From Acidobacteriota bacterium (GTDB taxonomy: Bacteria > Acidobacteriota > Terriglobia > Bryobacterales > Bryobacteraceae), in assembly GCA_016870995.1 (NCBI GenBank), contig VFZU01000033.1, positions 1 through 50,268 on the forward strand: DNA of 50,268 nt. Reading direction: 5' to 3'. Under the pieces are notes generated by a model. That model saw only the letters and a program-made list of their open reading frames with translations, did not search any database and was not told the DNA's origin. Both the position numbers and the translations under genes were made by a program. Shown one piece after another: positions 26,204 to 34,446 of this stretch; positions within the stretch are counted from its first letter, which is position 1, and the number at the start of each line of letters is the position of its first letter.

Positions 26204-26623
26204 TCAATTGCGGCAGGCGCAAGAGTCACACATCCCGTAGAGAATCAGCTCATGCGTGGTGGCGACGAAGCCAGTGGGCAGCTTCGGCTTGACTTGCACA
26301 GGGCAGCCCGGAAGATCAAACACTCGCTTGCACTCCGTGCAATGGAAGTGATGATGATGAGCCTTGCCGGCAATCTCGTACCGTGCCGGTTCGCCGGGGA
26401 GTTCCACGGGCGTGAGCCAGCCTTCTTCGACGAGGGCTTTTACGTTACGGTAGACCGTTGCGATGCCAAGGCCATCAATGCGGCTACCGGCCAGTTCAAG
26501 AACTTCCTGCGGCCCAAGAGGGCGGTCCATCTCTGCGAAGACATCGCGGATGGCCGCCTTCTGGCGTGTGTTCCGTTGGAGGATGGCTTTTCCCGATCCG
26601 TCAGGCAACTTGGACGGCTCCAT
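26204..26623 (-). CDS. Fur-family regulator, Zur-like
   Basis: This 139-residue Fur-family protein has a winged helix (RQKAAIRDVFAEM ... LGIATVYRNVKALVEEGWL) and a metal/dimer domain with HHHHFHCTECKRVFDLP and a C-terminal MCDSCACRN, giving two CxxC structural zinc sites. The His run and context suggest a zinc sensor (Zur), although Fur or PerR cannot be excluded. I chose the ATG at 26623; the open frame extends upstream but only in the frame antisense to nothing sensible (Thr/Ala-rich). This start lies 23 bases inside the end of the His-rich gene, so the two are coupled. It is the third gene of the SmtB-like operon. Confidence 0.85.
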   Translation of the reverse strand: MEPSKLPDGSGKAILQRNTRQKAAIRDVFAEMDRPLGPQEVLELAGSRIDGLGIATVYRNVKALVEEGWLTPVELPGEPARYEIAGKAHHHHFHCTECKRVFDLPGCPVQVKPKLPTGFVATTHELILYGMCDSCACRN

Positions 26624-26945
26624 GGTTGTCGCAGTGGCCGTTGTGCATGTGGTGGAGGTGGCCATCCACGAGATAGTCGATGTGATCACCGTGGGGAACA
26701 GCTTCGTGGCCGCAGCCTTCGCCATGGACATGGCCGGCTTCATGACCGCTGCACACGTGCCCGCCAGTGCAATCGGAGGGGTTCGCGGCGGTTACGGCAA
26801 TCGTATGCTCGTCGAAGTGCCCTTCATGCGCGTGATGCAGATGGCCATCATGAAGATAGTCGATATGACCCTCGTGGACAATGGCCGTGTGTCCGCAGCC
26901 AGGGCCGTGGACGTGGTCGTGATTTTCGTGGACGTGATGATTCAT
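26601..26945 (-). CDS. Small His-rich metal-binding protein with duplicated GHIDYL motif
   Basis: This 114-residue protein holds about 30 His residues and several Cys, in two tandem copies of one unit: HGPGCGHTAIVHEGH then IDYLHDGHLHHAHEGH, and HGEGCGHEAVPHGDH then IDYLVDGHLHHMHNGH. Between them is CTGGHVCSGHE. The composition suggests cytoplasmic zinc or nickel storage or delivery; no signal peptide is seen. I have seen related proteins annotated only as hypothetical. Its ATG overlaps the stop of the ArsR gene (ATGA at 26942-26945), and its end overlaps the Fur-like gene, so it sits between two metal regulators. The function is inferred. Confidence 0.8.
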   Translation of the reverse strand: MNHHVHENHDHVHGPGCGHTAIVHEGHIDYLHDGHLHHAHEGHFDEHTIAVTAANPSDCTGGHVCSGHEAGHVHGEGCGHEAVPHGDHIDYLVDGHLHHMHNGHCDNHGAVQVA

Positions 26946-27328
26946 TTTTGTGCCTTTCTCTTTACCGGCATGTTCTCAGTAGAATGCGCCAGAGCATTAA
27001 AAATCAAGCTAGCGACGTGTTGGTCCGCAAGCGAATAAAGAATGTGTTTGCCCCGCCGGCGGCGCGCGAGCAAATTTTCCGAGCGGAGCACACGCAGGCG
27101 TTGTGAAATCGTAGATAACTCTTCGCTGGTCGCAGCGGCGATTTCGCTGACACAAGCTTCCCCTTGAGCCAGCATCGCGAGGGTGCGTAACCGCGCCGGA
27201 TCTCCCATGGCGCGGAAAATCCGGGCCGCCACATCGATCGACGCTTCATCCACCGGCGGCATGAGACGCTTGCGGTGTTCGGGGTCATTCGGGGTGCAGG
27301 CTTGAGTCGATTTGAGTCTTGTTTTCAC
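26942..27328 (-). CDS. ArsR/SmtB-family metal-responsive repressor
   Basis: This 128-residue winged-helix repressor has FRAMGDPARLRTLAMLAQ, an HTH (CVSEIAAATSEELSTISQRLRVLR) and a wing (RRRRGKHILYSL). The last helix reads DQHVASLIFNALAHSTE, giving Asp102, His104, His115 and Glu118; this is the exact alpha5 zinc site spacing of SmtB (Asp104, His106, His117, Glu120). The protein should therefore bind DNA without zinc and release it with zinc. The start is a GTG at 27328 with no ribosome site; an ATG at 27262 is possible but would lose an N-terminal Cys/His stretch. A candidate operator lies directly upstream. It heads the leftward operon. Confidence 0.88.
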   Translation of the reverse strand: MKTRLKSTQACTPNDPEHRKRLMPPVDEASIDVAARIFRAMGDPARLRTLAMLAQGEACVSEIAAATSEELSTISQRLRVLRSENLLARRRRGKHILYSLADQHVASLIFNALAHSTENMPVKRKAQK

Positions 27329-27329
27329 T

Positions 27330-27343
27330 TGAACAACTATTCA
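27330..27343. promoter_or_regulatory. Candidate SmtB/CzrA-type operator
   Basis: TGAACAACTATTCA (plus strand) is a 6-2-6 imperfect palindrome with the half sites TGAACA and TATTCA. From memory these are the half sites of the SmtB and CzrA zinc operators. The match continues with TGAAA shortly after (27346-27350), as in CzrA as I recall it. It ends one base before the GTG of the ArsR gene, so bound repressor would block its promoter or transcript start. That the repressor binds here is inferred. Confidence 0.6.
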
Positions 27344-27442
27344 ACTGAAATGTAGCACAACTGAGGCGCGAAGTGAAGATCGAAATTTCTATCCTCGCGA
27401 TCCCGATCCCAAACCGCCAAAAATGTCATACAGTGGCAGCGT

Positions 27443-28342
27443 ATGAGAATCCTCGCTGCCTTTTTGCTTCTCGCGCTGGTATCGTGCCAGCAACCGAACC
27501 AACAATCTGCTGAATTGCTGGGTGCGAATGCCACCTGGGGCAACACAGAAGGCCCCGCGATTGACTCCAAGGGCAATCTTTACTTCACCTCCCGCGGCAG
27601 CTACAAGGGAGTCGTTTCGTGGAATGAGAAGGATGGCGTTAAGGAGTATCTGGCAGTCGCTACCAAGGAAGGCCCAGGTGGGCTTTACTTCGATGCGAGC
27701 GACAACATGTACGTAACCGCAACGGGCGAACAGCAGATTCTGAAGGTTACGCCCGACAAGAAGGTATCGGTGCTCGCAGAGAACTTCGATGCGATGCCCG
27801 GTAAGAGCAAAGGGCCGAATGATCTGGTGGTCGCCAAGGATGGGACGATCTATTTCACTGAGCCGAATGGATACGACGGCTCAGCCCCCAAAGGCACGGT
27901 TTACCGAATTCCGAAAGATGGCAAGCCTGAGGTGTTTTCGCAAGAAATCACAGGCACCAACGGGATCATTCTGAGTGCTGACCAGCAGACGCTGTATGTG
28001 GCTCACAACGTCGCCAAGGACACTTCGAACATCGTCAAATGGAAATTGCCCTCGGGCAAAGCAGAGTTAGTGGCAAAGGTTGAGCCTTGCCAAGCCGACG
28101 GAATGGATGTCGATCAGAATGGGCACCTGTGGCTCACTTGCTACTCCCACGGGATCGCACACAGAATCGATCCGGCAACGGGCCAATCGCTTGAAACAAT
28201 CACCACGGCGCAGAAGGCCTTGACGAACTGCAAGTTCGGTCGCGCGGGCAAACAGAACTTCCTGTATTTCACCTCGTCAGACATGGACCGCGTCACTGGT
28301 TACATTTATCGCGCTCAGGTTGCGACGGGCGGGCTTCGCTAA
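27443..28342 (+). CDS. SMP-30/gluconolactonase-like lipoprotein
   Basis: This 299-residue protein has a lipoprotein leader (MRILAAFLLLALVSC) with Cys15 as the likely acylated residue. A six-bladed beta-propeller of the SMP-30/LRE type follows: TEGPAIDSKGNLYFTSRG, KEGPGGLYFDASDNMYVT, KGPNDLVVAKDGTIYFTEPNG, TGTNGIILSADQQTLYVAHN, and CQADGMDVDQNGHLWLTCYS. The conserved Glu in EGP, Asn in PND and Asp in DGM are the usual metal-binding residues, so a lactonase-type hydrolase is likely. It is anchored to a membrane facing the periplasm. It is divergent from the ArsR operon, with about 114 bases between. Confidence 0.85.
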   Translation: MRILAAFLLLALVSCQQPNQQSAELLGANATWGNTEGPAIDSKGNLYFTSRGSYKGVVSWNEKDGVKEYLAVATKEGPGGLYFDASDNMYVTATGEQQILKVTPDKKVSVLAENFDAMPGKSKGPNDLVVAKDGTIYFTEPNGYDGSAPKGTVYRIPKDGKPEVFSQEITGTNGIILSADQQTLYVAHNVAKDTSNIVKWKLPSGKAELVAKVEPCQADGMDVDQNGHLWLTCYSHGIAHRIDPATGQSLETITTAQKALTNCKFGRAGKQNFLYFTSSDMDRVTGYIYRAQVATGGLR

Positions 28343-33994: not shown

Positions 33995-34446
33995 TAGGCT
34001 TTGGCGGCTTCCAACTCCTCGGCGCGCAGGGCTTGGCAATGAGCGCAATAACCACCAATTTCAGTGCGCACCAGGCGAATCTCAAAGCCGAAAGTTTCCT
34101 CTACTTCTTTACGAATTCGCTGCAGCGGATCACCGAAGTATTCTTCCACTTTGCCGCAACGCAAGCAGATCACGTGGGCGTGCTCCCGCTTCATGCGGGT
34201 TTCATAGTAGTGCTGGTCGCCGTCTTTGTGGAGCAGGTCAAGCTCGTCGACAAGACCCGATTCCTTGAGCATCTTCAGTGTGCGGTAAACGGTGACTCGG
34301 TTCAGCTTGGGATCCGTCTCGCGGGCCTTTATATAGAGGGTTTCTGCATCGAGGTGCTGCCCACTCTTATCGATGAGATCGAGCAAAACCTGGCGTTGCC
34401 GGGTGAGGCGGACGCCGCGCTCCTTCAAAGATCGTGTCATTTCCAT
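33994..34446 (-). CDS. Fur-family transcriptional regulator
   Basis: This 150-residue protein has a Fur DNA-binding domain (LTRQRQVLLDLIDKSGQHLDAETLY, LNRVTVYRTLKMLKESGLV) and a C-terminal metal/dimer domain (REHAHVICLRCGKVEEYF, GYCAHCQAL) with two CxxC structural zinc sites. The sensor site could be Fur, Zur or PerR type; I cannot decide. I chose the ATG at 34446 (MEMTRSLKERG), with an AGGGA site upstream. The longer open frame covers the divergent sigma gene and is not credible. It is coupled to the FHA-GAF-PP2C phosphatase and divergent from the sigma factor, with only 24 bases between the starts, so the control regions overlap. Confidence 0.88.
   Translation of the reverse strand: MEMTRSLKERGVRLTRQRQVLLDLIDKSGQHLDAETLYIKARETDPKLNRVTVYRTLKMLKESGLVDELDLLHKDGDQHYYETRMKREHAHVICLRCGKVEEYFGDPLQRIRKEVEETFGFEIRLVRTEIGGYCAHCQALRAEELEAAKA

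What the first reader, a model, noticed from the sequence alone, without database searches (positions are those of the whole stretch)
26204..27350. Compact zinc-type operon: SmtB-like repressor, duplicated GHIDYL His-rich protein, Zur-like Fur, with a CzrA/SmtB-like operator
Three overlapping leftward genes encode an ArsR repressor with the full SmtB alpha5 zinc ligand spacing (Asp, His, His, Glu), a 114-residue protein made of two His-rich repeats, and a Fur-family regulator. TGAACAACTATTCA lies one base before the first start codon and, from memory, carries the same half sites as known zinc operators. Two zinc regulators of opposite families enclosing a metal-binding protein in one coupled operon suggests an autoregulated zinc buffer. 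I do not know this arrangement as a described system. DUF507 and ribokinase follow and may be co-transcribed.
Basis: partly seen in the sequence, partly recalled or inferred. Interest (0 to 1): 0.7.

Follow-up and report, generated by a model that had tools for sequence, protein, structure and literature searches.

The report
SmtB-type, His-rich, Zur-type zinc operon
A small operon in a soil acidobacterium puts a zinc-excess type repressor, an undescribed histidine-rich protein and a zinc-uptake type regulator behind one conserved operator, which looks like a self-adjusting zinc buffer.

Summary
At 26204-27328 (-) three overlapping genes encode an SmtB-type ArsR repressor (D102/H104/H115/E118), a 114-aa two-repeat His-rich protein (HRP) and a Fur-family regulator; TGAATAGTTGTTCA lies one base before the ArsR start.

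The trio occurs in 18 of the 30 best-matching Fur loci of the family (two genera), and all 18 carry the operator with at most 2 mismatches. HRP belongs to a widespread family (at least 465 places in GTDB genomes) without a curated family model or solved relative found here. ArsR lies just upstream of 64 of 124 HRP genes examined; 60 of those 64 keep the alpha-5 metal ligands. The Fur protein keeps, in register, the zinc-site positions of cyanobacterial SynZur (one Asp replaced by His); 4 of 14 relatives inspected sit beside ZIP or COG0523 genes.

Best reading: excess zinc releases the repressor, making an HRP zinc buffer and more Zur. Zinc binding, repression and buffering are inferred. smtB-zur operons are published for mycobacteria and few relatives; the inserted HRP and the occurrence in Acidobacteriota are new as far as I searched.

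The parts
27349..27377 (-). Possible promoter: TTCACT (27377-27372), 17 nt, TACATT (27354-27349)
   Evidence: Weak here: 8 of 12 consensus matches, reached at 7% of random positions; consensus scanner lists nothing. 13 of 18 trio loci score 9 or more of 12 at this place.
27330..27343 (-). Operator TGAATAGTTGTTCA (plus strand TGAACAACTATTCA)
   Evidence: Exact 14-mer once in genome; at most 2 mismatches in all 18 trio loci; 2 of 57,080 other positions in those loci.
26942..27328 (-). ArsR/SmtB-type repressor, 128 aa from GTG
   Evidence: NCBIfam NF033788 83.1 bits over cut-off 55; SmtB best PDB match, ligands D102, H104, H115, E118.
26601..26945 (-). HRP, 114-aa two-repeat histidine-rich protein
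   Evidence: all-beta AlphaFold2 model, pLDDT 81.4, pTM 0.73; no curated family.
26204..26623 (-). Fur-family regulator, 139 aa, Zur-like
   Evidence: Pfam FUR 4.5e-18; H89, H91, C107, H124 at SynZur site positions.

Best explanation
A zinc-responsive, self-limiting buffer operon. At low zinc the SmtB-type repressor sits on TGAATAGTTGTTCA at the transcription start and holds the operon off. When cytosolic zinc rises, zinc binds the alpha-5 site (D102, H104 of one chain, H115, E118 of the other, by analogy with SmtB), the repressor leaves, and one message with overlapping frames gives more repressor, HRP and the Zur-like protein. HRP, a two-repeat His/Asp-rich protein predicted to be folded, binds the surplus zinc. 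The extra Zur-like protein, loaded with zinc, represses zinc acquisition. As HRP takes zinc down, the repressor returns. Shown here: gene anatomy and overlaps, conservation of trio and operator, ligand positions, and zinc-gene neighbourhoods of relatives of HRP and Fur. Inferred: zinc as the metal, repression and release, one transcript, buffering, and what the Zur-like protein controls.
For: SmtB match and ligands, kept in 60 of 64 HRP-linked ArsRs. Operator in all 18 trio loci, right after a promoter-like pair of 9 or more of 12 in 13 of 18. Trio in 18 of 30 Fur loci examined, 4 in the own genus and 14 in another. ArsR just upstream of 64 of 124 HRP genes and Fur just downstream of 7 of 124, against 0 of 330 shifted positions for each. 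Within 1.6 kb of the 124: P-type ATPase 13, ZnuC 12, COG0523 10, ZnuA 4, ZIP 2, CDF 1; ATPases of L036 and L057 exceed the TIGR01512 cut-off. SynZur-type residues in 57 of 58 Fur-clade proteins; ZIP beside Fur relatives in L113, L122, L124 and COG0523 in L115, of 14 loci inspected.
Against: No metal or DNA binding measured. The own genome shows no ZIP and no ZnuA at E<=0.001 (controls ring in 8 and 11 of 14 genomes), so the Zur-like protein has no known target here, and no box for it was found. The promoter of the window itself is weak (8 of 12). In the closest published case, M. smegmatis smtB-zur, net expression was apparently zinc-independent because both regulators act on it, so zinc induction of this operon cannot be assumed. 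45 of 61 family genomes had no HRP; two same-genus loci have Fur without ArsR-HRP. 60 of 124 HRP genes have no adjacent ArsR.
Confidence: 0.55

Rival explanations
1. HRP is a zinc carrier or supply protein, not a store: it hands zinc to client proteins or regulators and is useful in shortage as well as excess.
For: 60 of 124 HRP genes lack an adjacent ArsR, and several lie by uptake or chaperone genes: ZnuC 12, COG0523 10, ZnuA 4 of 124; L098 has HRP, Fur and a znu cluster; L047 has an exact Zur-box-like TGTTATAACATAACA upstream.
Against: The commonest single linkage is to an SmtB-type repressor (64 of 124), expected for an excess response. Zur-box-like sites of that type upstream of HRP genes without ArsR were significant in only 2 of 60, and in 1 of 64 with ArsR.
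Confidence: 0.22
2. A detoxification operon for another metal (cadmium, cobalt or nickel), in which zinc is incidental.
For: SmtB-type alpha-5 sensors respond to several metals (general knowledge; Cd response of AzuR in PMC8790569). His-rich proteins can bind nickel (recalled). NmtR, a nickel sensor, is the third best PDB match of the ArsR.
Against: Last ligand is Glu as in SmtB in 55 of 64; neighbours are ZnuC, ZnuA, ZIP, COG0523 and ZntA/CadA-type ATPases; Fur carries a SynZur-type site.
Confidence: 0.15
3. Only ArsR-HRP is a functional unit; the Fur gene is an unrelated neighbour, for example an iron or peroxide regulator.
For: 117 of 124 HRP genes have no Fur just downstream; L182 and L183 have Fur without ArsR-HRP; an inter-domain Glu aligns with that of CjFur.
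Against: HRP-Fur adjacency occurs in separated Fur branches (4 changes needed, at least 3 forced by well-supported branches; long-branch warnings apply). Fur lies within about 5 kb of HRP in G061, L036 and L056 too. In the 18 trio loci an ATG for Fur lies between 22 nt before and 16 nt after the HRP stop.
Confidence: 0.08

Closest known systems
smtB-zur operon of mycobacteria (and Nocardia, Saccharothrix, C. diphtheriae)
   Same: SmtB-type excess sensor and Zur co-transcribed, frames overlapping in several species, autoregulation reported (PMC7174638 passages; PMC6103462 passage).
   Different: Here an HRP gene lies between the two; another phylum; the Fur protein has SynZur-type instead of classical Zur site residues. 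M. smegmatis shows net zinc-independent expression; ours is untested.
SmtB or AzuR control of metallothionein (smtA, nmtA)
   Same: Alpha-5 repressor with a 12-2-12 type operator at the promoter of a small cytosolic metal-binding protein (PMC8790569 passages).
   Different: HRP is His-rich with 5 Cys, not Cys-rich, and matches no metallothionein model; a Fur gene follows.
ziaR-ziaA and similar: SmtB-type repressor with a zinc P-type ATPase
   Same: In the family, an ATPase lies beside HRP or ArsR-HRP in 8 of 17 HRP loci (L140, L142, L145, L146, L149, L151, L153, L154).
   Different: The window has no ATPase beside it; a Fur gene follows instead. ziaR-ziaA divergence is cited in PMC8790569.
SynZur of Synechococcus WH8102, which activates metallothionein bmtA
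   Same: Zinc-site positions counted from the structural cysteines: H89, H91, C107, H124 for D77, H79, C95, H115. Zur tied to a zinc store (PMC9337993 abstract and passages).
   Different: His for Asp77; a separate SmtB-type sensor is present; Glu83 kept; no evidence that this Fur activates anything.

Membership tests
ArsR/SmtB alpha-5 metal sensors | ArsR-family fold by sequence | tested here: met
   NF033788 83.1 bits over cut-off 55; Pfam HTH_5 37.6 over 22.
ArsR/SmtB alpha-5 metal sensors | D-x-H-x10-H-x2-E/H ligands in alpha-5 | tested here: met
   60 of 64 linked ArsRs.
ArsR/SmtB alpha-5 metal sensors | 12-2-12 type operator at the promoter | tested here: met
   Core TGAATAGTTGTTCA before the start; conserved in 18 of 18 trio loci. 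Only the 14-base core was scored.
ArsR/SmtB alpha-5 metal sensors | Zinc releases the protein from DNA | not testable with these tools
   Needs binding assay.
Zur (Fur-family zinc sensor) | Fur family with structural CxxC...CxxC | tested here: met
   Pfam FUR; C95, C98, C132 invariant in 18 aligned rows, some cut before the last Cys; C135 present in the window protein.
Zur (Fur-family zinc sensor) | Classical inter-domain site with Cys (as in S. coelicolor Zur) | tested here: not met
   No Cys at the aligned place; Glu83 there aligns with CjFur Glu.
Zur (Fur-family zinc sensor) | SynZur-type site (D/H, H, C, H) | tested here: met
   H89, H91, C107, H124; 57 of 58 clade members, partly by construction of the clade.
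Zur (Fur-family zinc sensor) | Controls zinc-uptake genes | tested here: inconclusive
   Relatives beside ZIP or COG0523 in 4 of 14 loci; own genome has no ZIP or ZnuA found; no box found.
smtB-zur operon | SmtB-type gene followed by zur on one strand, closely spaced | tested here: inconclusive
   Order, strand and overlap met, but an HRP gene lies between, and Zur identity and co-transcription are not shown.
Bacterial metallothionein | Cys-rich protein matching a metallothionein model | tested here: not met
   5 Cys against 29 His; no metallothionein match in 26 members in Pfam at E<=0.1 or NCBIfam.

The most novel reading that the evidence does not exclude
HRP is a member of an undescribed, widespread class of folded histidine-based zinc-buffer proteins (a 'histidine metallothionein' with a beta-repeat fold unlike any solved structure). 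Members of this acidobacterial family wired it between a zinc-excess sensor and a SynZur-type sensor, so that one transcript senses, stores and shuts off supply. The same Fur clade would carry the cyanobacterial-type Zur site into Acidobacteriota and Gemmatimonadota.
Probability: 0.4. Interest if true: 0.78.

Novelty: new variant of a known kind. Interest (0 to 1): 0.6.

Why it matters
Few cytosolic zinc stores are known in bacteria (general knowledge). A protein family found in many phyla, next to an SmtB-type sensor gene in half of the sampled places and without a Pfam or NCBIfam model found here, is a concrete candidate for one. The trio is also a testable feedback design: excess sensor, sink and uptake-type regulator expressed together. 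And it shows that smtB-zur type linkage, reported as confined to a few actinobacteria, has a counterpart elsewhere with an extra component.

Tried and rejected
Operator regulon: at up to 2 mismatches the genome has 19 places (reversed-pattern control 15), so only the exact site and the consensus were used. The one other consensus match lies inside an open frame of 567 aa.

Zur or Fur boxes upstream of HRP genes: four recalled patterns were tested with 100 shuffles each. Significant at 3 of 100 or fewer: without ArsR (60 loci) 2, 1, 4 and 3; with ArsR (64 loci) 1, 0, 0 and 4. No general Zur control is claimed.

A box shared upstream of 26 stand-alone Fur-clade genes: no shared perfect palindrome or frequent 8-mer; imperfect motifs were not searched for.

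A first guess that the permease after ArsR-HRP in L056 is a ZIP was dropped: Pfam says ArsP_1. The planctomycete trio in L094 has a Fur outside the clade and is not among the 18.

Fold relatives of HRP: none in PDB at E<=0.001. The second structure job and the viral fold library were not used.

Literature: searches gave no paper that I recognised as describing HRP or the trio; the library is open-licence PMC only. Seen: passages of PMC8790569, PMC7174638 and PMC6103462; abstract, outline and passages of PMC9337993; of the rest only search listings.

Full report
What is there. On the minus strand, GTG 27328 to 26942 encodes an ArsR-family protein, ATG 26945 to 26601 a 114-residue histidine-rich protein (HRP), and ATG 26623 to 26204 a Fur-family protein; frames overlap by 4 and 23 nt. 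DUF507 (26159-25572) and a ribokinase-like kinase (25568-24729) follow; an SMP-30/gluconolactonase-like gene (27443-28342) is divergent.

The repressor. Its best PDB match is SmtB (8.7e-17), and D102, H104, H115 and E118 have the SmtB spacing. Of 64 ArsRs just upstream of an HRP gene, 60 keep D-x-H-x10-H-x2-(E or H): 55 E and 5 H; 3 have another last residue (F, D, P) and L143 does not match.

The operator. TGAATAGTTGTTCA sits at 27343-27330, one base before the start codon, 5 nt after a -10-like TACATT with TTCACT 17 nt upstream. That pair is weak: 8 of 12, reached at 7% of random positions, and a consensus scan listed no promoter in the region. Comparison is stronger. All 18 trio loci have the site with 0 (7), 1 (9) or 2 (2) mismatches to TGAAYANNTRTTCA. 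In 13 of 18 a pair of 9 or more of 12 lies directly before it, with TTGACA exact in 12. Only 2 of 57,080 other positions of those loci come within 2 mismatches. Among all 64 linked ArsRs the site is lineage-bound: 17 had a match with at most 2 mismatches, 11 of them from loci of this family or its order by title or handle, including a TGCACA variant in L036 and L140. SmtB-type repressors bind 12-2-12 inverted repeats near the promoter (PMC8790569, passages).

HRP. Its halves share HIDYLxDGHLHH; it has 29 His, 5 Cys, 9 Asp and 7 Glu. NCBIfam gave no match to any of 26 members, PHROGs none to HRP, PDB none to their profile at E<=1. Pfam gave only scattered weak hits at E<=0.1, the best 0.0079 in one member, and a EutQ hit of HRP itself below its cut-off. 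It was found in 12 of 247 phylum genomes, 16 of 61 family genomes, 11 of 200 genomes of the phylum of the Gemmatimonas locus and 14 plasmid records, the window genome or the centre genome counted where it was searched. AlphaFold2 on 27 sequences gives an all-beta model, two sets of four short strands, pLDDT 81.4 and pTM 0.73; the five models range from 59.6 to 81.4 and the alignment is shallow. Foldseek finds nothing in PDB at E<=0.001.

Neighbourhood of HRP. In 124 distinct HRP places (9 duplicates dropped), ArsR lies within 300 nt upstream on the same strand in 64 and Fur within 200 nt downstream in 7. Within 1.6 kb there are P-type ATPases in 13, ZnuC in 12, COG0523 in 10, Fur in 10, ZnuA in 4, ZIP in 2 and CDF in 1. 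At 330 shifted positions, in loci of 12 kb or more, ArsR and Fur met the adjacency criteria 0 times. The sample leans to close relatives of the query and some loci are short, so these are not rates for the whole family. The ATPases of L036 and L057 exceed the TIGR01512 (cadmium family) cut-off and score well below the PRK11033 equivalog cut-off.

The trio. Of 237 family genomes 59 have a Fur relative at E<=1e-30, in 62 places; loci were given for 30 (own plus 29). Of these 30, 18 carry ArsR-HRP-Fur in that order and strand: 4 in the window's genus and 14 in one other. The other 32 places got no locus in that call; two were seen by another route, L147 (HRP-Fur, no ArsR detected) and L144 (Fur upstream of ArsR-HRP). 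In the own genus L180, L181 and L184 keep DUF507 and ribokinase; L182 and L183 keep Fur and DUF507 without ArsR-HRP in the flank. The L184 Fur match is flagged with one stop inside; its core, 1504-1863, translates without one. A tree of 55 Fur rows needs 4 changes of the HRP-Fur state, at least 3 forced by well-supported branches, with long-branch warnings: the linkage was gained or lost more than once. Outside the family, L094 has ArsR-HRP-Fur with a Fur of another kind, and Fur lies within about 5 kb of HRP in G061 and L056.

The Fur protein. At the inter-domain site Glu83 aligns with Glu of CjFur, and no Cys stands where S. coelicolor Zur has one. But C107 is invariant in 18 of 18 aligned clade members. 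PMC9337993 reports that Synechococcus Zur senses zinc with D77, H79, C95 and H115, with structural cysteines 83, 86, 123 and 126. Counted from these cysteines, the window protein has H89, H91, C107 and H124 at the four places, as do 57 of 58 clade members, the exception being the distant L161; of 11 lower-scoring Fur hits one, a partial clade member (L135), does too. That paper finds His for Asp77 in 11.0% of cyanobacterial Zurs. The clade was picked with a profile made from this protein, so its uniformity is partly built in; the register match to SynZur is not. Of 14 loci of relatives inspected, ZIP is adjacent in L113, L122 and L124 and COG0523 in L115. The own genome has two more Fur-family genes, one at 34066-34422 of the window and one next to genes that look like peroxiredoxin genes by eye.

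Against this reading. The own genome shows no ZIP and no ZnuA at E<=0.001 while controls ring, so the Zur-like protein has no known target here, and no box was found. A cadmium-family ATPase exists elsewhere in the genome (L178) but carries no consensus operator. 45 of 61 family genomes lack HRP. Many HRP genes lack ArsR and some lie in uptake clusters, so store and carrier are both possible. M. smegmatis smtB-zur is reported as apparently zinc-independent in net expression. Nothing here measures a metal.

Relation to what is known. [quoted passage not shown] diphtheriae, and cites autoregulation in M. tuberculosis; PMC6103462 (passage) agrees on co-transcription. SmtB-type control of a cytosolic metal-binding protein is the smtA/nmtA theme. 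The window combines both with another small protein in another phylum. Searches of an open-licence library gave no paper that I recognised as describing HRP or the trio. I rate it a new variant of a known kind, with the uncharacterised HRP family as its most interesting part.

Noticed in passing
L012, L031, L078: ArsR and HRP lie in one open frame without a stop between them, so they may be made as a fusion.
   Followed up: partly
L102, L107, L103, L108: HRP genes on plasmids: with ArsR on a Pantoea conjugative plasmid and a Pediococcus plasmid, beside a zinc ABC transporter in Paraburkholderia, and as two half-length copies named 'zinc transporter permease' in Rhodococcus.
   Followed up: partly
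L047, about 232 nt upstream of the HRP match: An exact TGTTATAACATAACA, a recalled Zur-box form, upstream of an HRP gene without ArsR in a Rhizobium MAG.
   Followed up: no
whole genome G000: No ZIP and no ZnuA family match at E<=0.001 in a genome of 98.99% completeness, so its zinc uptake route is unclear.
   Followed up: no
window 34066-34422 (-): A second Fur-family gene, in the same window, beside a gene whose product looks like a FHA/GAF/phosphatase protein by eye.
   Followed up: no
L018 and L021 (one contig of G098): Two HRP copies about 2 kb apart, the first beside znuA- and znuC-like genes.
   Followed up: no
L113, L115, L122, L124, L056 and other Fur-clade loci: A Fur clade in Acidobacteriota and a Gemmatimonas genome with the SynZur-type Cys/His register; such a site was described for cyanobacterial Zurs.
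   Followed up: partly
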